A stretch of DNA of 12,214 bases from Auxenochlorella pyrenoidosa (Eukaryota > Chlorophyta > Trebouxiophyceae > Chlorellales > Chlorellaceae): NCBI GenBank assembly GCA_001430745.1, contig KQ482021.1:529508-541721 (forward strand), written 5' to 3'. A program made the translations under genes and the position numbers. The notes beneath the pieces are model-generated. The model was given only the letters and a program-made list of their open reading frames with translations, did no database searches and was not told the origin of the DNA. Numbering within the stretch: the stretch's first letter is position 1; each line of letters begins with the position of its first letter. Positions 94 through 12,214 of the stretch are shown here, one piece after another.

Positions 94-1206
94 CGGGAGT
101 TGAGGTAGTCGACCACCCGCTTGCCCGCGGCGATCGCCCGCTCCCGCTCCGCCAGCTCCTCCTCCGTCAGCTTCACGGTGGCCTTCTCCAGGGCCTCGCG
201 GTCGTCGCCGTCGGCATACCTGCCCGGGAGGGAAGGGAGGGCGGCGGGGGTGGGGAGGGTGTTTTTAATTTTTTAATTTTTTTTAATTCATTTTGGGCGG
301 GGGGGGTATGGGGTATATGGGACGGCGTGGGTCGGGGAGGCCGGGGCAGCAGCGGCAGGCGGCCTGCGTGAAAGCTGCGGCGCCTCGGAGGCACACCGCC
401 CCGCGCGCCCTTGCGTGTGCCCAGCGCAGCGCGCGGGCCGGGCAGCCGCTGCCGGCGCGGCGCCGGCGGTCAGCCGCCCGGTCACCGCCCGGTCAAACGC
501 CCGGTCAACCCGCCTCACCGCCACCAGATGTACTGCGAGGGCGTCATGTCCAGGTGCTGCTCCACGTGGTGGAAGGCGTGCTGCGCCACGTAGGCGAGCC
601 GCAGGTTGGGGTGCTTCCACACGCTGCCCTCGTCGGGCAGCGTCTCGCCCGTCAGCATCTTGATGAGCGTGCTGCGAGCAGGCGGGGCCCGGGGGCGGGG
701 TTGGGGGTTGGGGTGGGGAGGTGGGGGAGGTGGTGGTTGGTGGTCGTGGTGTGTGTGGGGGTTAAGGAGGTGTGTGCGCCCGAGCCCCGCTGGGCCCCGG
801 CCCCGGCCCAGACGCACCTCTTGCCCGCGCCGTTGGCGCCCAGCACCGCCACGCGCGACCCCAGGCTGACGCGGATGTTCACGTCAGTCAGCTGCTTCTT
901 AGACGCGCCGGGCCAGGTGAAGGACACCTGATGGGACCGGGGGGAGGGAGGGGGGGGGAGGGGGGGTGAGGCACTTGAGCAGGGTGGGCCCGAAGAATGG
1001 GGGAGTTCGGCAGGGGTGGGCCACCTGCCGCCCGCCTGCCTGCCTGCCTGCTGCTCGACCGCCGCCGCCAGCCCCGCCGTCAGCTGCAAACCGACGCGGC
1101 CTGCAAACCCAGTTTGTTTGCCCAAACACAAGAAGAGGCGCCGCCCCGCGCACCCCGGTCATCTTGGCAATGGCCTGCGTCTTGCCCTTGATGCCGTCCA
1201 GGAAGC
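94..1206 (-). other. EEF3: eEF3 exons 17-20: start of second ABC domain (partial)
   Basis: Exon 17 encodes [18 protein letters not shown]. Exon 18 starts ABC2 ([18 protein letters not shown]) and ends inside Walker A. GANGAGKS is at residues 766-773 and intron 18 interrupts the Ser codon. Exon 19 carries TLIKMLTGE, the [19 protein letters not shown] block typical of eEF3, and TPSQYIWWR. Exon 20 is the charged helix [20 protein letters not shown], which precedes the chromodomain insertion in fungal eEF3. The ABC2 signature, Walker B and the chromodomain are not in the window, so ABC2 activity cannot be judged. Confidence 0.92.
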
Positions 1207-4200
1207 CTGCAGGGGGGGCGGCGCAGCAGGCGCAGCAGGGAGCGTGCAGGGTCGGCGGACAAGCCAGGCACACAGGGAGCATGCAGGGTGCCTGGCCATG
1301 GGCAGCACAGGGCGGGCGGGGGCAGGGGCGCTGGCCGCAGGCTCCGCCCTCCTCAGAGCGGGCGCGGCGCGGCGGCGGCGCCTGCGGCAGCACCCACCGG
1401 GCTCCGAGAACTTAAAGCGCAGCGAGGCAATCGGTCAACAGAGGCAGCCAAGTCGGTCAACAGGCAGCACCCACCGGGCTCCGGGAACTTGAAGCGCAGC
1501 GAGGCGGCCGCCAGCTCGTAATAGGTGCGCGCCTCGGGCTTGACCTTGACAAACTCTGACAGGTTGCCCTGTGGGTGGGATGGGGTGGGTGGGTGGGTGG
1601 GTGGGTGGGGGAGTGGGGGGCGGTGGTGTGTGTGCGCAGGTGAGTTGTGTGTGGGGGGGGGTATGTGTGGTGTATGGAGCGGGGGTGTGGTGGAGGCGGG
1701 GGAGTGCTGCTAGGGGAGAGTAACAGGTTTGCTAGGGGCCAAGTCGAAAGGACAGGCTGCTGCGCGGACAAAAAACGTACTGAACACATGAATGGACGCA
1801 TGGATGTGTGGGCGGGGCCTGTGGCGGCGCACCTTGTAGTGGACCAGCTTGCGGGTCTCATAGTGGATGATGTCGGTGCACACGTTGTCCAGGAATCCAG
1901 AGTCGTGCGAGACAATCATCTGCGGCGGAGGCGCGGGGCGGTCGGGGCATCAGTGCCCTGTCCCCGTGCAGACGGCCATGGCCAGCATGGGCGGCGGCCG
2001 CGAGCGCGGCTGCCAGAGCACGCAGGCGGTTGCGCAGCTGCGCGAGCCCTCGGCCACTTCGCTCGCGCTGTGCAGGGCCAGGCGGGCACGCTGGGCATTG
2101 GTGCCGCCAGTGCCAAGGGCGGCGTAGAGCGTGGATGCAGGGCAGGCCCCAGCGGTCAAACAGGCGACCCAGGCCGGTCAAACCCTATCCACCCACCGAC
2201 GAGATCTCCGGCCGGTTGACCAGGTAGTTTTCCAGCCAGGCCACGTTGGCCACGTCCAGGTGGTTGGTGGGCTCATCCAGCAGCAGGATGTCGGCCCGCA
2301 TGAGCATCGCCCGGGCTGCGCGCGCAGGCAAGGAAAGGAAGGAAGGAGGGGACGAGATCGCACGTGGGTGTGGGCCGAGGAAACTGGGCAGGGCGGGCAG
2401 CCCTTGGCGGGCTGTCCCTGCCCAGCTGCCCTGGCTGCTGATAGGCGGGAGGGCAGGCGGGCAGGGCAGCGGCGGCGACGACGGTTGTTGGCAGGCCAGC
2501 CCGCCGCATGGGCGGCCCGCGGCGCAGCCGAGCCGGGGCGCAAGGGCAGATAGAGTGGCAAGGGCGGCGCTGCCCTGTCCGCCGCTGCTCCTGCCAGTGG
2601 CGCCTGCATGCACCCTCTGCGGGTGGGAACCAGCGGGCGTGCCCGCCGGGAGCTGCAGGCAGCCCTCACCTAGCGCGAGCTTCATCTTCCAACCGCCGGA
2701 GAGCGACCCCACAGGCGTGCTCTGCAGCTGCGGCGTGAAGCCCACCGATGCCAGCACCTCGATCACCTGCAGGCAGACAGAGGGTGGGTGAGGGGCCCCA
2801 CCATCCTCGCCAACAGCGCAGCCAGCAACCGCGGCTGCCCAGCAAGTGCGGCGTGCCGAAGGTCGGGTGCTGGGCGCCGCAGGCGCCCCCATGCACCGCG
2901 CCCTGGAGGTTTGACCAGCACCCACCGGGGGTTGACCAGCACCCACCTGCTCGCGCGAGGGCTTGGTGGCCTCCTGCACCACCTGGTCCGAAAACACAAA
3001 GTCCACGACCCCGGTGGTGCTCTCTGCAGGGACGGAGGGGGCGCCGAAAGGTGGCGCAGATGGGCGACGAGTGACGGGCAGTGCAGTGGGCAGCAGCAGC
3101 GGGGGCATCCTCACCACCCGCCGGCAGTCCCAAGGCACGCCCAGCGGTTCCCAGGCCTGATGTTCACCAGGCCTGCCGCCTGCTGCCTGCCCCGACGGAG
3201 CCGCCCTATCCGCCAGTGGGTACAAACAAACCCCAGCTCCCTCTCGCGCCCCATCTTGGCCGCACCCGAGGCGTCAATGTCATGCTCCACATACACTGTG
3301 CGCAGCTGCTCCTTGGGGGGGAAGCCGTCCACCTTGCCGTTGCTGCAGGGGCAGATAGGCGCCAACACGAAAAGGAAATGGGTGGATATCCGGCAAGTGT
3401 GGACTTGCAGCGACCAGGCAGGAGAGGCAGGGGGTGCACTCGTGGGCTGCAGCCTGGCGCGTCAGTGCGGCAGGGCGAGGCGGGACTTGCTGGCGCGGGG
3501 GATGTGGGCGTGGTGCCGCGGCGTGGCGCGAAGCCCAGCGGGCACCTGCTCAGCAGGCATCAGCTTGGCCCGCCCAGCCCAGCCCGCCCAGCCCCGCCCG
3601 ATCCGCCCAGCAGCAACACCAAGACATTTTCTTCAGTATACTAATTTAAAAAAAAACTTTATGGCAGAAGGGCCCACCGGGCCCACACAGCTGCCGCCTA
3701 GGACCACTCACGCGATGGCGCGCATCAGCGTCGACTTGCCCGCGCCGTTGGCGCCGCAGAGGCCGTACCGCCGGCCGCGCTTGAGCCGCAGCGTGGCGTT
3801 GTTGAGCAGAATGCGGCCGCCGTAGCCGAGGGAGAATTCGCAGTTGCAGAGCTCCTCCTCGCCGTCGTCGTCGTCCTCCTCCTAAATAAAAAGAACAAGG
3901 CGAAGGGGTAATTTTTGCTTGTTGCTTTAGAGGGAGAACTCGCAGTTGCAGAGCTCCTCCTCGCCGTCGTCGTCCTCCTCTTCCTAAAGAGGGTGGGACA
4001 GGCAAGGGGGGTCATCTTTGCTTTGATTCACTAGCTTTATGGAGCAGACAAGGGCCGGCAGCCTGTCAGATCAGGTGCTCTCTGGAGATCGCCGCAATTG
4101 TGGCTGGGGCAGGTCCTGCGGCACGCATGCCCTGCTGCACAAAGCAGCCCCCCCCCCCCCGGGCCGCCCCGATGCACCGCCCGGTGGCGCATGCTGACAG

Positions 4201-7200
4201 CTCCCGTCACTGCCCACGCCAGTGCCCAGGCCCCACCCCCACGGCAGCTCGGGGCATGGCAGGCAGGGCGGGGGGGCCTCACCACCGGCGGCTCGCCCAT
4301 GTGGCGCAGCGCCCTAAACCCGGAACGCCTCAACCCCGTAACCCCTAAACCCCCTAAACCCTCACCACCGGCGGCTCTCCCATGTGGCGCAGCGCCCAGC
4401 GGTGCAGCGCGTGCGTCGCCAGCGTGGCGGGCCCCTTGTCGCCGCCAAACAGCCCGGCAGCCAGGTAGGGGATTAGGTTGTTCTCCCAGGACCTGCAAAA
4501 GTGGGCAGCCGAGAGGAACGTTGGAGGAGGGACCGTGAGTGCGGGCCGCGGGGCGTATGTGTGTGTGTGTGGAGGGGGGTCTGGTTGTTCTCCCAAGACC
4601 TGTGTGTGTAAGAGGGTGGGGTGGGGGTGGGGTGGGTGGGGGCAAGAGGCGGCAGAGTTGTCAGAGGCGAAAGCAGCGCAGGCGGGAGGGAGAAGCGTGC
4701 ATGGCGCGGCGACAAGCAGGGGCGCGCGCTGCCGCTGCAGGGGCAGTGGCGCGCTGCGGCGGTACTGTGGCGCTGCCCCGGCGCCCGTCCCAGCGCCCCG
4801 CCCAGGACGCCGCCGCCCGCCGCACCTCTGGCTGTGGCTCTTGGCGGCGATCAGCGACTCGCCCACCGCCGCCGCGTGGCTCAGCACCGCGCTCGCAGCG
4901 GGCGTGAAGAGGTTGGCGGATGGTGCGGCTGCGCTGGCTTCCTGCCGCAGCGCGCCCAGCACCTCGGCAAGGTCGGCGGCGTGGCCCACCGCCGCCTCCT
5001 GCTCGTCTGCTGCATCTTTCACCCGCTGCAGGGCGTCGCGTGCGCGAGCACCCACCTGCAGGCAGCAGGAGGGGGGGTACAGAGCGGGAAGCGCGCAGCT
5101 AGGGGGGACGGGCATGATGCGAGGAGCTCAGCCCAGCAGAGGGCCCGACGCCTGCAGGCCACGGCATGCGCCAGAACCCCACAGGCGACCCCGCTGCCGC
5201 CAGGAATGGATCCAAGAAACAGGGGGGGGCAGGGCAACAATTGTATGGAAAGAGCACTATCAGAAGGAAAAATAGTTCAGTACTATGTATTCAGGCATGA
5301 AAATCTGGCTACCTGCCGCAGCTCCGGGTCTGCCGCCTCGTTGGCCAGCCGGTCGAGCAGCGGCATGAGCTGGGGCAGGAAGGGCCGGGCCTCAGCCGGG
5401 TCTTGCACCTGCGGCAGCAGAGAGAAAAAATAATAATAAAAAAGCAGGGGGCGGGCATCGTCGCCGGGGCATGGACCGCCGGCAGCGGCGGCGACACGGG
5501 GCTGGCTGGCAAAGCGGTCTGTGCGACGGCAAGAATGCATGAGCGGGGATGCAACCTGTGCAGCAGCAGCCGCGAGCGCGTGGGCGTGCCTGCCAGGTGC
5601 GGCACCAAACGGCGCTGCCGCATGTTGGCCCCTGAGAGCCGGCCCCCCGGCCCCAGCACCCACCAGCTTTGACATGTTTTCGATGATGACCGAGGCGCGG
5701 CGGTTGACCACGGTTGACCGCTCGCGCAGCGCGCGCACCATGAGCGGGACCATTACCGCCAGGCAGCCGTCCTCCATTGCCTGTCGCGGGCAGGGGCAGG
5801 CCCGTGGGCTAAAATTTGAAAACCCGGGGCTCCCTGGCTACTTGGCTCGACGACACGGGTGGGGCGCCGCTGCCCTGCGGCGCGCAAGCCCCGAGCCCGG
5901 CCCGAGGGGATGGCGGTGTGGCGTGGCAGCGCGGCGCAGCCGCCGCGGGTTGGTTGCGCTGCCAGGGTACAGCGCGGCAGCCCGGCGGCTCAACCCCGCT
6001 GCCTGGCTGCGGCATGGCAGCCCGCTGGCTCGACCGCACTGCCAGGCAGCGAAGCGGCAGCACCCAGCGGGTTTGCGGCAGCACCTGGCGGGTTTGCGGC
6101 AGCACCCACCTGGACAAACGTTGTGGCCGACAGCTTGGCGATGACGTCTGGCACCTCTGCCGGCTTGGCGATGCAGGAGACCAGGGCGGGGATGTGTGGC
6201 TCGAGGTCGCGGTTGCCCGCGGTGCCGCAGGCCGCCAGCATGGCCTCGGCCGCGGCCGCCGACACCTGCAAGGGAGCCGCGCCAGCCGGGCACGTTGGTT
6301 TCGCCGCAGGGAAAGCGGGCGCGGCGGGCGCGAGGCGGCCAGAGATGAGCAGCCCGGGCCTGCGGCGCGGCGCGGCATTCTGCAAAAGCTGGCCCGCCGC
6401 GTGCTCTCGCCGGCAGCGGACGAGGGCCGACAGGAAGCGAGTGAGCAGCCACTGGAGCATGAGGGGCAACTTTGACCGCCGCAGGGGCAGCGGCGCGCCC
6501 TGCCAACCAGAGAGAGACCGAGCGACGCCCCCAGATGCCATAAAGCCTGCCGACGGCTTGGCGCAAAGGAGCGGCGCGAGCGTGGGCAAGTCAAGCAGGC
6601 CACAGATGAGGGTTGAACAAGCTCAAACAAGGTCAAACAAGGTCAAACGGGGGGGGGGCTTGCCTCGGGGCGGATGTCCACCATGCACTCGGAGACGCGA
6701 GGCACCACCGCCACCATGCAGTGCGCAAACTCCTGCGCAGCAAAGCATGAGGGCGGGAGGGCCCGGGCCGGCCTGTCAACCGACAGTGGCGTGCTGCATG
6801 CTGCCGGGCGCAGCCAAGGACGGAATGCTCCGCCCGAGCGCAGGCGCAGCCAGAAGAGTCGCCGGCCAAGCGGCGGCGGCGGCGCCCGCACACTGCAACA
6901 CATACACCTCGGGCGGCAGGCCGTGCTCACCGACGGCGCCCGCTTGGCCAGGCTGCCCAGCAGCTTGAGCGCCCCCGCCCGCGCCTGCCACTTCAGGCCC
7001 TGCTCCGTGCCCGCCAGCAGCAGGCCGGTGGCGGCCTTGACGGCGTGGGCGTTGATGGAGGCCACGAGGGCGGCGCCCGCCGCGCCCGCCGCCTCCCTCA
7101 CCGCCTTGACCTGCAGAAAGGTTGCAGCAGGCTTCCAGCGACTGAGTCCTGCTTCTTCTATGTTCTGCACGCAGGCGCTGCGCCGCAGCAGCGCCGCGCT

Positions 7201-8072
7201 GCCCAGCCGTGGCCCAGCAGCGAGGCCGCGCCGCCCCTTGGCTGGCGCCCTACCCTGCCCGCACGCATCATGCGCAGGCAGCAAGCCCCAGCAAGCCTCA
7301 GGCACCACAGGCAACCGGGCCCAAGCAATTGCAGCCATGCACGCCGCAGACGCCCGCGTCGCTGCCAGCGATCGACCTGGCCGCACCAGCGGCGCCCCAC
7401 GTCGCTGAGCGCGCAGCCCCTGCACCAGGCAGGCCACTCACCTTATCAGCATGGCAGGCCAGCACCTGCGGCAGCAGGGGCAGGAGGAAGGGCTCCACCT
7501 GCCGGCCGCCCTCCCGCGCCAGCGCTGCATACGCCGCCAGCCCGGCCTCACGCTCCACGGGCAGCGAGTCCTCGCCTATCGCCTTCTCCAGGGCGCCCAG
7601 AAGGCCTGCACCAGAGCCAGCAGAGCCGGGCAGTGCGTGAGGGACAGGCGAACGGTGCCAAACGCGAGCTTGTCAACAGCCGTGCGCTGCCCGGCGGCAC
7701 GGGCAGCGGTATATCCATACTTGCATCTGGTTGCTACCCCAGGGGTCGCGCCCCACGCGCTGCACACGCAGACGCACCGTGCTGGTGCAGGGCGGCCAAG
7801 CCCTCGCGCAGCGCCAGCCCTCCGAGCGCTGCCGCGTCCCGGCTGCCCGCAGCCAGCAGCTCCTTGATCTTGTCGGCCGCAGCACCCACGTCGCCGCCGG
7901 CGCCCTCCAGCAGCTCGGCATACAGCTCGCTGGGGCCCTTGGCCGGCGGGGCAGGCGCCTTCTTGCCATCGAGCGAGAGGCGCTTGACGCCGTCTGCCGC
8001 CGCTGCCGCCGGCGCCAGCGGGGGCTTGCGCACCAGCAGGCGGATGCCGCCGGCGGATGGTTTGGCAGACAT
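94..8072 (-). CDS. EEF3: Translation elongation factor 3 (eEF3), partial, 20 exons
   Basis: This gene encodes the fungal-type elongation factor 3, a cytosolic ribosome-bound ATPase that helps release E-site tRNA during elongation. Exons in transcript order: 7778-8072, 7442-7605, 6931-7110, 6664-6732, 6110-6265, 5664-5780, 5313-5408, 4826-5055, 4366-4492, 3712-3881, 3266-3342, 2947-3023, 2670-2766, 2197-2315, 1833-1919, 1475-1568, 1154-1206, 818-927, 519-671, 94-219. All phases agree, giving 865 codons plus two bases. Yeast eEF3 has about 1044 residues, so the remainder of ABC2, the chromodomain and the C-terminus lie beyond the left edge. The order HEAT region, helical linker, ABC1, ABC2 is diagnostic, and blocks such as LCNCEFSL, the VEHDID stretch and [13 protein letters not shown] match the eEF3/New1 family. 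I chose the ATG at 8072 because it gives a fungal-like N-terminus and has A at -3. An in-frame ATG at 8456 is the alternative. New1-like function cannot be excluded. Confidence 0.95.
220..518 (-). other. eEF3 intron 19 with donor-side TTGACC repeats and AT-rich patch
   Basis: The intron begins TGGCG|GTGAGG and ends GGGCAG. Just inside the donor (479-509 on the plus strand) are three or four diverged copies of a 12-13 bp unit containing GGTCAAAC, GGTCAAC and GGTCAC. Near the acceptor, 261-294 holds T-runs separated by AATT, giving an A-rich stretch in the transcript that is unlike the surrounding GC-rich DNA. Confidence 0.7.
1386..1505. repeat. 43 bp direct repeat duplicating the exon 16 donor
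   Basis: Positions 1463-1505 cover the last part of exon 16 plus the first bases of intron 16. Positions 1386-1428 repeat them with 41 of 43 identical bases (period 77). The copy keeps the donor (GAGCCCG|GTGGGTGCTGCC in transcript sense). The spacer contains two copies of TCGGTCAACAG. This looks like a tandem duplication of the exon-intron border, leaving a second, downstream donor inside the intron. Confidence 0.88.
1569..1832 (-). other. eEF3 intron 15 with (GGGT)n tract at the acceptor
   Basis: The plus strand at 1571-1612 is a run of GGGT units, so the transcript has a (CCCA)n pyrimidine-rich tract right before the acceptor CACAG|GGC. A further G/T-rich stretch covers 1613-1700. The GGGT run fits a G-quadruplex pattern on the DNA strand that serves as template. 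No other feature was seen. Confidence 0.6.
2154..2183 (-). repeat. Paired GTTTGACC words near the intron 14 donor
   Basis: GGTCAAAC occurs at 2154-2161 and 2176-2183 on the plus strand, reading GTTTGACC in the eEF3 transcript, 14-43 bases inside the donor at 2196. The same arrangement is seen in introns 4, 16 and 19. Confidence 0.75.
2316..2669 (-). other. eEF3 intron 13, no recognisable content
   Basis: The donor is CTAG|GTGAGG and the acceptor GCGCAG|CCCGGG. The 354 bp interior is GC-rich with loose GGCAGGGCGG-type repetition. I see no gene, RNA or clear repeat in it. Confidence 0.7.
2909..2947 (-). repeat. Tandem copy of the intron 12 donor segment
   Basis: Transcript-sense GGTGGGTGCTGGTCAAC occurs at 2931-2947 (the real donor, after CAG of exon 12) and again at 2909-2926 as GGTGGGTGCTGGTCAAAC, a period of about 21 bp. 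This leaves two equivalent donor sequences about 21 bases apart. Confidence 0.8.
3343..3711 (-). other. eEF3 intron 10 with an AT-rich patch
   Basis: The donor follows ATCGC|GTGAGT and the acceptor is CTGCAG|CAACGG. Positions 3626-3661 are strikingly AT-rich (TATACTAATTTAA then a poly-A run on the plus strand), unlike the remaining GC-rich intron. No coding match was found in any frame. Confidence 0.6.
3828..4039. repeat. ~105 bp tandem duplication of intron 9 end plus exon 10 start
   Basis: Unit 1 (3828-3929) contains the real exon 10 start and its acceptor. Unit 2 (3930-4039) repeats it. The 59 bp core at 3930-3988 differs from 3828-3886 at only a few positions, and the flanks (AAGGGG, TTTTTGCTT, GCTTTA) also align though more diverged. 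Both units have a TTTAG acceptor. The upstream copy encodes the same acidic run and LCNCEFSL, then hits TAA, so splicing to it would end the protein early. All other acceptors here are CAG. Confidence 0.9.
4278..4397. repeat. 37 bp direct repeat duplicating the exon 9 donor
   Basis: Positions 4361-4397 include the last codons of exon 9 (HMGEPPV) and the donor GTGAG. Positions 4278-4314 repeat them with 36 of 37 bases identical, 83 bp further into intron 9. The 46 bp between the copies is telomere-like. Using the second donor would read through GTTTAG, a stop in frame, so it is not productive. Confidence 0.9.
4315..4360. repeat. Degenerate interstitial telomere-like repeat (CCCTAAA type)
   Basis: The segment contains CCCTAAACCC at its left border and CCCCTAAACCCCCTAAACCC at its right, with degraded units (GTAACCCC, CTCAACCCC) between. 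In eEF3 transcript sense this is TTTAGGG, the canonical telomere unit of plants and many green algae. It begins within eight bases of the exon 9 donor. Confidence 0.8.
4366..5055 (-). other. EEF3: eEF3 exons 8-9: helical linker before ABC1
   Basis: Residues 360-478 correspond in position to the four-helix bundle between HEAT repeats and ABC1 in fungal eEF3. The sequence is Ala-rich and poorly conserved until exon 9, where [10 protein letters not shown] and a histidine-rich amphipathic segment occur. Exon 8 ends in phase 2 with an AG|GTGCGG donor and exon 9 starts with the single base completing that codon. The exon 9 end is set at GTG|GTGAGG, because reading on meets a stop within a few codons. 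Both borders of exon 9 have partial duplicates in the flanking introns. Confidence 0.8.
4493..4825 (-). other. eEF3 intron 8 with decoy acceptor copy
   Basis: The 20 bp at 4583-4602 repeats the acceptor and first bases of exon 9 (4476-4495) with 19 of 20 identical. In transcript sense it reads ACAG|GTCTTGGGAGAACAACC. Splicing there would shift the frame and end in a stop at the true exon 9. Around it lie TG/G-rich low-complexity runs at 4556-4640. The rest of the intron shows nothing recognisable. Confidence 0.8.
5781..6109 (-). other. eEF3 intron 5, built largely of short tandem repeats
   Basis: A 21 bp unit is repeated at 6054-6074 and 6075-6095, with a partial third copy at 6096-6110 running into the donor of exon 5. 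Each unit contains GCGGCAGCACC. Further in (5965-6053) are more diverged GGCAGCCCG-CGGCTC-ACC units. The donor is CAG|GTGGGTGCTG and the acceptor GACAG|GCA. Confidence 0.75.
6266..6663 (-). other. eEF3 intron 4, GC-AG type
   Basis: Exon 4 must end at CCCGAG and exon 5 begin GTGTCGGCG, because [12 protein letters not shown] follows the eEF3 family pattern and phase 0 is kept. The donor is therefore GCAAGC, a GC-AG intron with a good match to the usual GCAAGT form. Just inside it are GGTCAAAC at 6641-6648 and 6631-6638 and GCTCAAAC at 6621-6628, a 10 bp tandem repeat. The 398 bp intron otherwise shows nothing recognisable. Confidence 0.85.
7111..7441 (-). other. eEF3 intron 2, no recognisable content
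   Basis: The donor is GATAAG|GTGAGT and the acceptor TTTCTGCAG|GTCAAG. The 331 bp interior is GC-rich and I see no repeat, RNA or coding match in it. Confidence 0.7.
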
Positions 8073-9224
8073 CCTGGCGTGCAGAGAGCGGGAAATGTGT
8101 GAGCCGGATGGGCAGGGCAACACAAGAACGCAGCGCCGCCATTTGGCCACATGCAAACTGCTTTTGGGGCTGGGCGCGCCCTTTGAACTCCCAATGCTTC
8201 CAGCATCACCTGCAACCAACGAAAACTCTGCCGGAGGGAGCCCGCTCTTCGCAGCGCTGAAGCCAGAGTCCCTTGCTCGCCAAGACTGGCGGGCAAGTGG
8301 CAGGGGCTGTGCCGCGCTGCCGTAAAAGAGACTGCAGTCAGGTCTCGCGCTCAGCAAATGCGCCAGTGGCCAGCATGCCGGGCGGGCGGTGGCAGCAGCC
8401 GCTACTGCTGCCTCTGCAGATGTGCCCTTTTTTCTCAAGTGAGATGTGCTCAACATGTGCACGTGATGTACAGAACTGAATCATTTAGCACCCTCCAATG
8501 GTTCTTTCGGAAAGCTCCCTTCTCTGGTTGTGCCCCAGCCGGCGGAACAGTTGAAAATGCTACGTTTCGTCGGCAGCAAGGAAGGCTTGTTGACATGTGG
8601 ACATCCAGAACTATGTTGTCTACAGGATCATGCAAAAAGTCAACGGACCAAGCAAGTGATCATGCCGAATGCTGTCCAGGGGACAGAAGCAGGCTGGCTA
8701 AAAGGCTCACGCTGAGTCCTTAGTTGCAGAACAGCTCACAGTTGCCCAACAACTTGTTACCTACACGAGCAATGAACGCCTGCTCTTACCAGTCTGAGAA
8801 ATGTAGTCGACACGGCATGATTGCAAACAAAGCCCAAATGCGAGAGGCAGAGCCACCGCAGCATCCAACAGCATGGGTGATCGGTGTGAGCACTGTGCAA
8901 GACGCGTGCCTGTGCAAGCATTTTACCTACGCAGCCTTGCACTTGGGTTCCTGCTGCTTGCTCATCAACTTCTGAGATGTCAATTTGGTCCAAAATTGAA
9001 TTTCTGCAGGCCACCAGCTCCGAATTTAGCCCATCATCAAGTGTCGGCCATCAGTCAGGTTGACCGCCACTGCGCTGCCGCTGCTGGGCAGCCCAAGTGA
9101 CTGCAGCAGGGCATGAGTCCTTCCTTGCTTTGCGCACTTATCTTTATCCGTCTGAAACACGAACACGCTCACGAATTTCGATAGTCAGTTCGACCACACG
9201 AGCCAGCGGCGCCGAGCTCATATC

Positions 9225-9243
9225 ATAGGCCGACCTAGCCTAT
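9225..9243. promoter_or_regulatory. Inverted repeat upstream of the PP4C TATA-like element
   Basis: ATAGGC and GCCTAT form 6 bp arms around a 7 bp centre, ending 13 bp before TATATTT. Its position suits a factor-binding site, but arms this short can arise by chance. Confidence 0.3.
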
Positions 9244-9256
9244 CTGAGCCTCGCAG

Positions 9257-9263
9257 TATATTT
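9257..9263 (+). promoter_or_regulatory. TATA-like element of PP4C
   Basis: TATATTT lies 84 bp before the PP4C start codon in otherwise GC-rich flank. That distance allows a short 5' UTR. No transcription start is shown by the sequence. Confidence 0.4.
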
Positions 9264-9346
9264 GACGGGCCGCCCAGCAGCAGGGCGCGCAGGCAGGGCA
9301 GGAGTTGCCGCGGCGGCCCGCCGCACGGCTTGGGGCGGCAACGGCG

Positions 9347-12126
9347 ATGGACCTGGACCGGTGGATTGAGCAGGTGCGCTGGGAGGGTCGGGCGGGGGGC
9401 TACAGGGCGCCCTACCCCAGGGCAAGTGATGGGCCCACCTGCCGCTGCTGCCGCCTCCTTGCTGCTTCTCACACCTGCGTGCCCCTGTCTTGTCAAGCAT
9501 ATTGCCGGCGTGGAATGCGGAAGTGTTGCTGCTCCTGTATGACTGCCCAAGCCAAAGGGAGTGCAGACTCAGCGCCCCTGAGTGCTGAGGTTCCCGCCTG
9601 AACCAACCAACGCCTGCTCCCCTGCCCTGCAGTTGAAGCGCTGCGAGCCGCTGAAGGAGAGCGATGTGAAGCAGCTGTGCGAAAAGGCGGTGGAGATTTT
9701 GGTGGAAGAGGCGAATGTGCAGCGGGTGGACGCCCCCGTCACAATCTGTGCGTGGCCGTCCAGCCCTGCTGGGGCATGGGGCGCCCTGCTGTTGCTCTGA
9801 AGCTGCGCTGCCGGGTGTGGCGGCACCTGTGTTGCCGGTTGCTGGCAGGGTCGCAGTGCAGCTACTGCCCGTTCGCGCTTTGGGCGACAGCCGTGGGCAA
9901 ACAGCAGTCGCCGGCGCGCGGTGCTGACCCCTGCACGCCCTGCATGCCCGTCCTCAGGCGGCGACATTCACGGGCAGTTCTACGACTTGACAGAGCTGTT
10001 CAAGGTTGGAGGGGACTGCCCACAGGTGCGCATGGATTGCAGAGCGCCAGGCTGAAGCCCTCCCTGGGTCGCCAGGCGCGCCAATGCCTGCCGCTGCCGG
10101 CTGCTGCCCACCAGCAGGAGCAGTTGCTGCTAGCACTCGCAGCAAGCCTCCCTGGCTGGGGGGACCACCTCCCACTTCAAGCACTCAATGCGGATGGGTG
10201 GCCATGCAGACAAACCACCTGCTCATTAGAAGCATGTGCCAGGCCTCGCAACCAAGCCTGCCACCCGCCCCTGCAGGCAAACCACCTGTTCAACAGAAGC
10301 ATGTGCCAGGCCTCACAGCAAGCCTCCCACCTCCCACCCTCCCTCTTCCTGCAGACCAACTATCTGTTCATGGGCGACTTTGTGGACCGCGGCTTCTACA
10401 GCGTGGAGACCTTCCTGCTGCTGCTGGCGCTCAAGGTGGGCGGGGGCTGACACACGCACACGCACGGCCGGGTTCTGGCACTGCCAGACAGCTGTGTGAC
10501 TGCTGCTGCGCCTGGCTAGCGCCCAGCTAACGCCTGCTGCTGCAGGTGCGGCCGCGCAGCGAGGTGCAAAGGGATTGCCAGCCCAGCTGCGCACGCGTCG
10601 TGCGCGTGCGTGCATTCATGCCCGCGTGGCTTGCACCTCGGGCATGGTGTGTGCAGGGCTGCTTGTGCGGTGCGCTTGCCGGTTGGGGGCCACGAACCCA
10701 GACGCATCCAGCTGTCGCTCGGTGCGCCTCCCCTCTGCAGGTGCGGTATCCGGAGCGCATCACCCTCATCCGCGGCAACCACGAGAGCCGGCAGATCACG
10801 CAGGTGGGTGCTGGGTGCGGTACGGCCTGCCAAGCGCGGCCCGGGCGGGCATGAGCGGGCACGCATTGACCGCTCGGCCAGCCCCTGCATGCGCCGTAGC
10901 CGGGAAACCTCTCGGTGACGCGGCGTCACGCCGGCGATGCATTTTGCCGATGCCCAACCGCTGCGCCGCGCCCCTGCCTGCCAGGTGTACGGCTTCTACG
11001 ACGAGTGCCTGCGCAAGTACGGCAGCGCCAACGTTTGGCGCTACTGCACCGACGTCTTTGACTACCTGTCGCTGTCGGCGCTCATCGACGGCGCCATCTT
11101 TGCGGTGCACGGCGGGCTGAGCCCCACCATCACCACCCTGGACCAGATACGCACCATCGACCGCAAGCAGGAGGTGCGCCCGGGGGGCGCGCGCTGCTCT
11201 GGGGGGCGGCCTGCGCTGCGCGCCCTGCAGGGTCGGGGGCCCGGGGCGGCAGCGCCAGGGCACGGCAGGGCTGGCAGCGGGCACCTGTGGGCTGCCCTCC
11301 AGCACCGACGTGTGCCCTCCAGCACCGACGTGTGCACCCAGTAAGCTCGAGCGCGCCTCACATGGACGACCATACTGGTTGCGGGCCCTCAGCAGGCCTG
11401 AAAACCAAGCGCTGGGCGCTCGACGGCAGGCAGCGCGGCTGTGGCCTGCTGCCCTTCCCCTGCTGGCCCCTTGCAACACCCCCCTCCCTTTCAAGCCCCC
11501 CACCCCGATCCCAACCCCAACCCCACCCACCCGCCCACCCCGCCTGCCCCGCTCCCCTCCCCGCAGGTGCCGCACGACGGCGCCATGTGCGACCTCCTGT
11601 GGAGCGACCCCGAGGATGGTGTGGACGGCTGGGGGCTGAGCCCCCGCGGCGCGGGCTACCTGTTTGGCCACGACATCGCCACGCAGTTCTGCCAGGCCAA
11701 CGGGGTGCGCCCGGGGCTGGGCTCCACGGGGCTGCGGGGGCAGCGCGGGGGCGGCAGGGGTGCAGCCGGGCCCGCGGCGCCGGGTGCTGCGGACGACAGA
11801 GGCGCTGTCGCGGCGCCCTGCAGCGCGCGCGCTGAGCAATGCGCGCTGCCAGACCCCCGGCTGGCGTGCCCAGGCCGGCGAGGCGGGGGCGGCGCTCGTT
11901 CCACACATGAGTGCTCCTTGTACACCGCCCCCCCCCCCCCCCCCCCTCCAGGCAGGTAACGTCCACCCGCACAAACCTCCCCTCTTTGTACACACACTTT
12001 AACCCCCACCCCACACACACAGGTGGAGCTGATTGCGCGGGCGCACCAGCTGGTGATGGAGGGCTACAAGTGGATGTTCCGGGACCAGCTGGTGACCGTG
12101 TGGTCGGCGCCCAACTACTGCTACCG
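9347..12126 (+). CDS. PPP4C: Protein phosphatase 4 catalytic subunit (PP4C/PPX), partial, 8 exons
   Basis: This is a Ser/Thr phosphatase of the PPP family, working in nucleus and cytosol with PP4 regulatory subunits. Exons: 9347-9373, 9633-9747, 9958-10025, 10355-10435, 10741-10803, 10985-11173, 11567-11704, 12023-12126. All phases agree, giving 261 codons plus two bases; the family is about 307 residues, so the last exon(s) with the C-terminal tail are beyond the right edge. Motifs are GDIHGQ (49-54), GDFVDRG (77-83), RGNHE (108-112), HGGLSP (160-165), RAHQ (233-236) and SAPNYCYR (254-261). Metal ligands D50, H52, D78, N110, H160 and H235 and the proton donor H111 are all present. [10 protein letters not shown] and FYDLTELF, with [19 protein letters not shown], mark PP4 rather than PP2A or PP6. 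The start gives MDLDRWIEQ, matching the PP4 N-terminus, with G at -3 and +4. All eight donors begin GTG. Confidence 0.96.
10026..10354 (+). other. PP4C intron 3 with two upstream copies of the exon 4 acceptor
   Basis: The acceptor and first bases of exon 4 (GCAG|ACCAACTATCTGTTCA at 10351) are echoed at 10206 (GCAGACAAACCACCTGCTCA) and 10273 (GCAGGCAAACCACCTGTTCA), with spacings of 67 and 78 bp. The two intronic copies also share AGAAGCATGTGCCAGGCCTC. The 10273 copy is in frame and open into exon 4, and would add 26 residues. The 10206 copy is out of frame. Confidence 0.8.
10436..10740 (+). other. PP4C intron 4, no clear content
   Basis: The donor is AAG|GTGGGC and the acceptor CTCTGCAG|GTGCGG. 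A 12 bp match to that acceptor (CTGCAGGTGCGG) occurs at 10540-10551 inside the intron, possibly another decoy but close to plain splice consensus. Nothing else was recognised. Confidence 0.6.
11174..11566 (+). other. PP4C intron 6 with a perfect 20 bp tandem repeat
   Basis: TGCCCTCCAGCACCGACGTG occurs twice in direct succession at 11293-11312 and 11313-11332 without mismatch. Before the acceptor, 11479-11565 is a C-rich pyrimidine tract (CCCCAACCCCA-like). The rest of the 393 bp intron holds nothing I recognise. Confidence 0.8.
11705..12022 (+). other. PP4C intron 7 with poly-C tract and AG|GT site
   Basis: The donor is AACGGG|GTGCGC and the acceptor CACACACAG|GTGGAG. Inside it, a long poly-C tract at 11928-11946 is followed by CTCCAGGCAG|GTAACG at 11947-11961, an acceptor joined directly to a donor with no exon between. 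This is the layout of a recursive splice site, though none is proven. Confidence 0.5.
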
Positions 12127-12175
12127 GTGTGTGTGTGGGGGTGGGGGGGGGGGGGGGGCGCCAACTACTGCTACT
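12106..12175 (+). repeat. Tandem copy of the exon 8 end of PP4C
   Basis: GGCGCCCAACTACTGCTAC at 12106-12124 (end of exon 8) recurs as GGCGCCAACTACTGCTAC at 12158-12175, one C shorter, inside intron 8. Both are followed by TGTGTG-rich sequence, so the unit of about 52 bp includes the donor region, with poly-G between. Confidence 0.85.
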
Positions 12176-12214
12176 GTTGTGTGTGTGTGTGTGGTGGGTG
12201 GGTGGGTGGGTGGG
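12127..12214 (+). other. PP4C intron 8, partial, G/T-rich microsatellite
   Basis: The donor is TACCG|GTGTGT. The visible intron consists of TG repeats, a long poly-G run at 12141-12158, the duplicated exon fragment, and a GGGT run at 12191-12214 that fits a G-quadruplex pattern on the coding strand. The remaining PP4C exon(s) are expected further right. Confidence 0.75.

What the first reader, a model, noticed from the sequence alone, without database searches (positions are those of the whole stretch)
1386..12175. Recurrent tandem duplications spanning splice junctions in two unrelated genes
At least six exon-intron borders have a nearby copy that includes both exon sequence and the splice site: exon 16 donor, exon 10 acceptor, exon 9 donor, exon 9 acceptor (eEF3), exon 4 acceptor and exon 8 donor (PP4C). 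Further donors (introns 4, 5, 12, 19) carry short tandem repeats abutting the site. Period is about 50-110 bp for the larger ones and 10-22 bp for the small ones. Copies range from 1 mismatch in 37 to heavily diverged, so the process is recurrent and not one event. It suggests introns here grow, or their borders move, by local duplication, leaving decoy splice sites. This goes beyond ordinary simple-sequence expansion, because no comparable exon duplication was noticed away from junctions.
Basis: seen in the sequence. Interest (0 to 1): 0.8.

Follow-up and report, generated by a model that had tools for sequence, protein, structure and literature searches.

The report
Spliced-out exon-edge copies in algal introns
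In a green alga related to Chlorella, short stretches of genes have repeatedly been copied next to themselves, and copies that fall across an exon-intron border seem to survive as fossils inside the intron; this is probably ordinary local duplication filtered by natural selection, though oddly concentrated in a few genes.

Summary
The window (a Chlorellaceae eEF3 gene and a PP2A-family phosphatase gene) has 10 local duplication pairs at score 18 or more, none in 20 shuffles. Five span a splice junction; a sixth (PP4C exon 4 acceptor) is older and weaker. The pattern recurs elsewhere: in 28 stretches (124.7 kb, 264 introns) there are 16 junction-spanning events, 10 intron-interior ones, none inside exons. 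Introns with events are longer (median 325 against 218.5).

That junctions are special is not needed to explain this. Simulated random tandem duplications, with exons conserved and introns decaying, match the junction share, copy size and exon/intron asymmetry for one scanned setting. Younger assumed ages leave a junction excess (p 0.004-0.017), so a mild preference stays open. Unexplained: all 16 junction events sit in 5 of 28 stretches (11.4 expected; P 5e-5, though a chi-square on the same counts gives only 0.04).

Likely origin, inferred: repair of staggered or paired-nick breaks. One filler carries the telomere repeat found at a contig end. A known kind of mutation in an informative setting.

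The parts
94..8072 (-). eEF3 gene, exons 1-20 (the gene continues beyond the window)
   Evidence: gene model; 86, 86, 82 and 78% identical to four Chlorellaceae-type eEF3 proteins (two named Chlorella ohadii and C. sorokiniana, one named C. vulgaris and partial, one unnamed), with no insertion at the duplicated junctions they cover (the partial one does not reach exon 16)
9347..12128 (+).
1463..1505 (-). exon 16 donor, real copy (31 exon + 12 intron bases)
1386..1428 (-). copy of the exon 16 donor inside intron 16, splice site intact, spacing 77
3828..3886 (-). exon 10 acceptor, real copy (54 exon + 5 intron bases)
3930..3988 (-). copy of the exon 10 acceptor inside intron 9, splice site intact, spacing 102; its use would stop translation at codon 497 of the modelled 865
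4360..4397 (-). exon 9 donor, real copy (32 exon + 6 intron bases)
4277..4314 (-). copy of the exon 9 donor inside intron 9, splice site intact, spacing 83
4312..4360 (-). telomere-like filler between (and overlapping the edges of) the two exon 9 donor copies, three TTTAGGG units
   Evidence: three in the window, 0.34 expected; 2 of 200 shuffles reach three; contig C31 ends in TTTAGGG repeats
4468..4495 (-). exon 9 acceptor, real copy (25 exon + 3 intron bases)
4575..4602 (-). copy of the exon 9 acceptor inside intron 8, splice site intact, spacing 107
10202..10250 (+). intron 3 copy 1, acceptor-like, 88% like copy 2
10269..10317 (+). intron 3 copy 2, acceptor-like; matches the real exon 4 acceptor (10348-10370) with score 13, reached by 1 of 1000 shuffles
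12111..12156 (+). PP4C exon 8 donor, real copy; much of its intron part is G/T repeat
12161..12206 (+). copy of the PP4C exon 8 donor, splice site lost
5957..6051 (-). intron-interior duplication, 40 bp unit, 76% alike
11293..11335 (+). intron-interior duplication, 20 bp unit, exact
6054..6108 (-). 21 bp repeat abutting the exon 5 donor
2908..2947 (-). 21 bp repeat spanning the exon 12 donor
6616..6648 (-). 10 bp repeat 15 bases inside the exon 4 donor
467..510 (-). 12 bp repeat next to the exon 19 donor

Best explanation
Small local duplications (spacings mostly 30-130 bp, some with inserted filler) arise repeatedly and roughly at random along genes of this alga, probably when staggered or paired-nick DNA breaks are filled in and end-joined. 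Shown: the copies, their sizes, their place on the intronic side, none inside exons, longer introns. Inferred: selection removes duplications inside exons, while those inside introns or across one junction survive because the outer splice site is still used, so the extra copy is spliced out. Also inferred: a junction copy stays readable longer because one of its partners is a conserved exon and splice site, which makes junctions look special. The break-repair origin is inferred from filler, in one case telomere-like, and from work in other organisms.
For: No exon-interior event in 36,961 coding bases, where about 14 would be expected at the intronic rate, or about 5 if only multiples of three survived. 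A no-preference simulation (divergence 0.05-0.25, one indel per two substitutions, observed spacings) gives median exon part 27, intron part 6, exon part longer in 82%, length/spacing 0.43, identity 0.90 and junction share 0.53; observed 26, 8, 81%, 0.44, 0.93 and 0.62. Indel-rich decay is seen directly in the gapped alignments. In 7 of 17 events with a gap of 12 or more the gap resembles the flanking sequence at p <= 0.02 on at least one side (two more borderline), as a full tandem unit would. Introns with events are longer, median 325 (n 23) against 218.5 (n 234). Use of any of the four eEF3 copies would stop translation early, and relatives' proteins carry no insertion there. The exon 9 donor filler carries three TTTAGGG units and contig C31 ends in TTTAGGG. 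Paired nicks with 46-nt overhangs yield tandem duplications in mouse cells (PMC5730883, passages).
Against: Junction events sit in 5 of 28 stretches (11.4 expected; P(5 or fewer) 5e-5; chi-square on the same counts p 0.042). The junction:interior ratio is 16:4 there and 0:6 elsewhere (Fisher p 0.0009 at score >=16; 0.015 at >=18), which a uniform process does not predict. With younger ages (0.02-0.15) the simulation gives 39% junction events and the observed share is too high (p 0.017, 0.006 and 0.004 at the three score cut-offs); even in the best-matching setting p is 0.028 at score >=25. Divergence and indel rates were scanned by me and the best match picked, not measured. Interior pairs average 87% identity against 93% for junction pairs, as the idea of a frozen partner suggests, but the simulation itself shows a smaller difference (0.895 against 0.913). 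In 8 of 17 events the gap shows no homology to the flank, so not all are simple head-to-tail units.
Confidence: 0.7

Rival explanations
1. Duplication really is biased to exon-intron junctions in some genes, for instance because breaks, R-loops or reverse-transcribed pre-mRNA used as a repair template arise there.
For: Junction share 16 of 20 in the five event-rich stretches and 0 of 6 elsewhere; excess over the simulation with young ages or with strong pairs only (p 0.004-0.028); junction probes find copies in their own introns (24 of 528 edges at score >=12 against 2.5 in non-cognate introns) while probes 36-70 bases into the exon hardly do (6 against 3.4; 473 of 528 edges have such a probe).
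Against: The no-preference simulation reaches the same shape and share in one plausible setting. Donors and acceptors are hit equally, 8 and 8; copied lengths vary from 19 to 63 and interior events exist. Few probes deep in the exon are expected in either case: simulated exon parts exceed about 60 bases in only about 5%. At score >=13 the deep probes give 3 against 0.9, which is not nothing.
Confidence: 0.18
2. The copies are functional: alternative splice sites kept to regulate expression, e.g. unproductive splicing.
For: 12 of 16 copies keep an intact site, most of similar predicted score; using any of the four eEF3 copies would truncate the protein.
Against: 4 of 16 have lost the site; their divergence is within what neutral decay gives in the simulation; relatives' eEF3 proteins and solved PP2A-family homologues lack the extra sequence, which speaks only to the main protein form.
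Confidence: 0.05
3. The introns belong to a mobile introner-like family whose insertion creates the flanking copies.
For: GTGGGTGCTG occurs 15 times in the 260 introns tested (1.2 expected), 13 of them in the first tenth of the intron.
Against: Genome searches with two junction regions found only the locus itself, plus for one of them an 81% match in the eEF3-like gene on C23 (masked sequence is presumably not searchable). Fillers differ from event to event.
Confidence: 0.03
4. Assembly error or collapsed haplotypes produced the extra copies.
For: No reads were available to check.
Against: Most copies differ from the real site by scattered substitutions and indels (one, L025 1548/1639, is exact over 35 bases), they recur at many loci, and they lie on the intronic side.
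Confidence: 0.04

Closest known systems
Small tandem duplications from end-joining of breaks with protruding ends (mouse ES cells; PMC5730883, passages, which cites similar results in Arabidopsis and human cells)
   Same: Head-to-tail copies of tens of bases, sometimes with inserted filler
   Different: Here seen as evolutionary fossils in an alga, at exon edges; the enzymes involved are untested
Interstitial telomeric repeats inserted at double-strand breaks (PMC2246262, passages)
   Same: Telomere repeat units at one duplication (exon 9 donor); the source reports duplications at 6 of 130 rodent and 4 of 25 primate insertions
   Different: One degenerate case only; no ancestral empty site available
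[quoted passage not shown] potato RdRp case, PMC4974935, passages; review PMC3443670, passages)
   Same: Tandem duplication involving exon sequence and splice sites, protein left unchanged
   Different: Here both copies lie on the same side of the intron and no new intron is shown. The potato paper also mentions an 83 bp tandem duplication inside an intron that left the gene structure unchanged, which is close to this.
Stwintronisation by donor duplication in Lipomyces (PMC7138796, passages)
   Same: A copied donor inside an existing intron, proposed there to come from repair of a staggered break
   Different: Copies there are 4-7 bases; here 19-63 bases including exon, on both donor and acceptor sides, with no nested intron shown

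Membership tests
Local tandem duplication by break repair | direct repeats of tens of bases, close together, above chance | tested here: met
   10 pairs at score >=18, none in 20 shuffles
Local tandem duplication by break repair | full head-to-tail unit, gap homologous to flank | tested here: inconclusive
   of 17 events with a gap of 12 or more, 7 at p <= 0.02, 2 borderline, 8 none; 34 comparisons, no correction
Local tandem duplication by break repair | dependence on end-joining enzymes | not testable with these tools
   needs experiments
Intron gain by tandem duplication (Rogers model) | one copy at each end of the intron, splice sites from duplicated AGGT | tested here: not met
   in the 16 junction events both copies lie on the same side of the intron (one after a hand-changed model, A 10377; one at an uncertain exon, L036)
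Intron gain by tandem duplication (Rogers model) | intron absent in relatives | not testable with these tools
   no relative's DNA held
Introners | many similar intron copies dispersed in the genome | tested here: not met
   two junction regions only; masked sequence is presumably not searchable
Stwintron | internal intron removed first, by consecutive splicing | not testable with these tools
   needs RNA
   p 0.25 in the best-matching setting at score >=16 (0.14 if PP4C exon 4 is counted as junction), 0.004-0.017 with younger ages
Interstitial telomeric insertion | filler made of the organism's telomere repeat | tested here: met
   one event only, degenerate

The most novel reading that the evidence does not exclude
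In a subset of genes of this alga, duplication is truly focused on exon-intron junctions, perhaps through breaks or RNA-templated repair tied to splicing, so that these genes keep gaining decoy splice sites and their introns grow from the borders inward.
Probability: 0.18. Interest if true: 0.75.

Novelty: new member of a known kind. Interest (0 to 1): 0.4.

Why it matters
It shows how random local duplication plus selection can look like a junction-specific process, and offers exon-anchored fossils as a way to count such events. It also gives a direct case of an intron grown by local duplication (one WD40-gene intron, 711 bp, holds a stack of donor-spanning copies, model changed by hand). The concentration in a few genes is an open, testable question.

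Tried and rejected
Rejected: chance (shuffles for the window, A, B and 11 stretches; none were run for the 14 stretches L034-L047); mobile introners; functional decoys as the main reason. The eEF3-like gene on C23 was looked at as a natural comparison; its stretch has one 19 bp intron repeat and no junction copy, and it is too diverged to align introns. Short repeats (spacing 9-27) lean to the donor end: 6 of 17 arrays at score >=13 start within 12 bases of the donor against 2.8 expected, none near the acceptor against 2.8; suggestive only. Paper searches showed in their listings no report of junction-spanning decoy copies in Chlorella; several lists were cut (for example 20 of 285), I saw listings only, and the library lacks most subscription papers.

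Weak points. The sample is not random: 23 of 28 stretches were taken for chaperonin or kinase matches, two adjoin event-bearing loci (L046, L047), B holds the eEF3-like gene, A was readable near the window, and the window itself was picked for the finding. Gene models come from my own gene finder, trained first on the window. Of 173 Pfam matches lie in the fetched stretches; I first typed 67 of them (9171 of 10182 bases in the right frame) and checked the 15 left out only at the end (2727 of 3429; several hold stops, i.e. introns). Two models in stretch A were changed by hand so that inner copies are intronic; at A 10377 a reading with both copies coding in frame is not excluded. The L036 event rests on an uncertain short exon; without it the count is 15 to 11. 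PP4C intron 3 is counted as interior; as junction the count is 17 to 9. In one search the spacing list was typed by hand (25 values, the one of 380 left out, one set to 84), as was the table of observed shapes; the counts 14:6 and 12:4 were recounted as 15:6 and 13:3. The earlier simulation gave junction shares of 0.29-0.63 (score >=16) and 0.33-0.76 (>=25).

Full report
What the window is. It is G000:C36:529508-541721 in a 51.6 Mb, 65-contig genome. From this I take the organism to be a Chlorellaceae green alga; the species was not identified.

Check of the observation. The scan found 10 local direct-repeat pairs at score >=18 and none in 20 block shuffles. Five span a splice junction; a sixth, at PP4C exon 4, is an older copy whose match to the real acceptor is reached by 1 of 1000 shuffles. 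The short repeats near the donors of introns 4, 5, 12 and 19 are there. There are also interior intron pairs that the finding does not list (5957/5997, 11293/11313).

Is it general? Of the 200,000 bases of contigs C36 and C23 that I took first, 162,930 are masked, so I worked with what could be read: 28 stretches, 124,736 bases, 36,961 of them predicted coding, 264 introns. Twenty-three stretches were chosen for chaperonin or kinase matches; the others are the window, a readable neighbour (A), the stretch with the eEF3-like gene (B) and two that adjoin event-bearing loci. This is not a random sample. Gene models came from a gene finder I wrote; 11,898 of 13,611 bases of the 82 Pfam matches in these stretches were in the right frame. 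With spacing >=28 and score >=16 there are 26 events: 16 span a junction, 10 are intron-interior, none is exon-interior. Shuffles gave 0-0.2 pairs per stretch or set where run; for L034-L047 none were run. Junction events occur in eEF3, PP4C, an alpha/beta hydrolase and a WD40 gene, two chaperonin genes and, less surely, a kinase locus. A finer search with junction probes found copies in the gene's own intron for 24 of 528 exon edges at score >=12, against 2.5 in non-cognate introns; exon probes 36-70 bases from the junction, available for 473 edges, gave 6 against 3.4 (at >=13: 19 against 0.9, and 3 against 0.9).

Anatomy. The extra copy lies on the intronic side in the 16 events, in two of them after I changed the model by hand. 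Median exon part 26, intron part 8. Eight donors and eight acceptors are hit, and 12 of 16 copies keep an intact site. Using any of the four eEF3 copies would stop translation at codon 478-760 of the modelled 865, and relatives' proteins show no insertion there, so the outer sites are presumably the ones used. In 7 of 17 gapped events the gap resembles the flanking sequence at p <= 0.02 on at least one side, two are borderline, eight show none. The filler at the exon 9 donor carries three telomere units TTTAGGG (2 of 200 whole-window shuffles also reach three); contig C31 ends in degenerate TTTAGGG repeats. One intron of the WD40 gene (711 bp) holds a stack of donor-spanning copies. Introns with an event at spacing >=28 have median length 325 (n 23), those without any event 218.5 (n 234); seven with only short-spaced events were left out (Mann-Whitney p 6.5e-5). 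Longer introns also offer more room, so part of this is expected.

Does it need a junction-specific process? I simulated random tandem duplications, discarding any inside an exon, freezing splice sites, nearly freezing exons and letting introns decay. Using the observed spacings, divergence 0.05-0.25 and one indel per two substitutions, the simulation gives exon part 27, intron part 6, exon part longer in 82%, length/spacing 0.43, identity 0.90 and 53% junction events; observed 26, 8, 81%, 0.44, 0.93 and 62% (p 0.25). The reason is geometric and selective: a 50-110 bp unit in a 260 bp intron often overlaps a border (42-43% of placements without filler), exons purge their own duplications, and a copy whose partner is a conserved exon stays recognisable longer. 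But with younger ages the expected share is 39% and the data exceed it (p 0.004-0.017), among the strongest pairs even the best-matching setting gives p 0.028, and the variant with short units and filler gives 29-45% in seven of eight settings and 72% in one. The settings were scanned, not measured. I therefore say that targeting is not needed, not that it is excluded.

Against the simple model. All 16 junction events lie in 5 of 28 stretches, where 11.4 were expected (P 5e-5; a chi-square on the same counts gives p 0.042), and the junction:interior ratio is 16:4 there and 0:6 elsewhere (Fisher p 0.0009; 0.015 at score >=18). I have no explanation for this clustering.

Mechanism. In mouse cells, breaks from paired nicks with 46-nt overhangs are repaired into tandem duplications by classical end-joining (PMC5730883, passages). 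In mammals telomere repeats are inserted at breaks, sometimes with duplication of the site (PMC2246262, passages). These fit the sizes, filler and telomere units here, but the step is inference.

Comparison with known kinds. It is not intron gain by the Rogers model, because both copies lie on one side of the intron (model as told in PMC4974935 and PMC3443670, passages). I found no sign of an introner family (within the searchable part). It resembles the donor duplication proposed for stwintrons (PMC7138796, passages) on a larger scale. I rate it a new member of a known kind, with an unexplained concentration in a few genes.

Noticed in passing
window 1388-1397, 1465-1474, 2916-2925, 2937-2946, 5654-5663, 6100-6109, 10804-10813 (and 7880-7889, in exon 1): The ten bases GTGGGTGCTG recur, mostly at splice donors: 15 in the 260 introns tested against 1.2 in shuffles, 13 of them in the first tenth of the intron; 7 in window introns, 3 in stretch A. 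An extended donor type, or a family of related intron ends.
   Followed up: partly
window 490-508, 1432-1460, 2153-2181 and others: TTGACCG occurs 10 times in the window against 1.03 expected; in 260 introns 12 against 2.6 on the sense strand, 8 of them in the first fifth of the intron.
   Followed up: partly
introns of 28 stretches: Short tandem repeats (spacing 9-27) lean to the donor end: 6 of 17 arrays start within 12 bases of the donor, 2.8 expected, none near the acceptor, 2.8 expected. Constraint on the branch point and pyrimidine tract may explain it.
   Followed up: partly
donors of predicted introns; window exon 4 of eEF3 (6664-6732): 26 of 267 predicted donors are GC rather than GT, including eEF3 exon 4; some may be prediction errors.
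   Followed up: no
P0002 (C. sorokiniana eEF3): A nine-residue in-frame repeat (TSCIARPAE) within the region of our exon 5, absent from the other three relatives aligned: an exon-interior duplication in a relative, or an annotation effect.
   Followed up: no
C23:3011228-3022769 (stretch B): A stretch with an eEF3-like second gene, 28 predicted exons and no junction copies, in contrast to the window's eEF3.
   Followed up: partly
L047 4541-4597: An exact 24 bp repeat, about 3.4 copies, in sequence predicted as noncoding; it may be coding.
   Followed up: no
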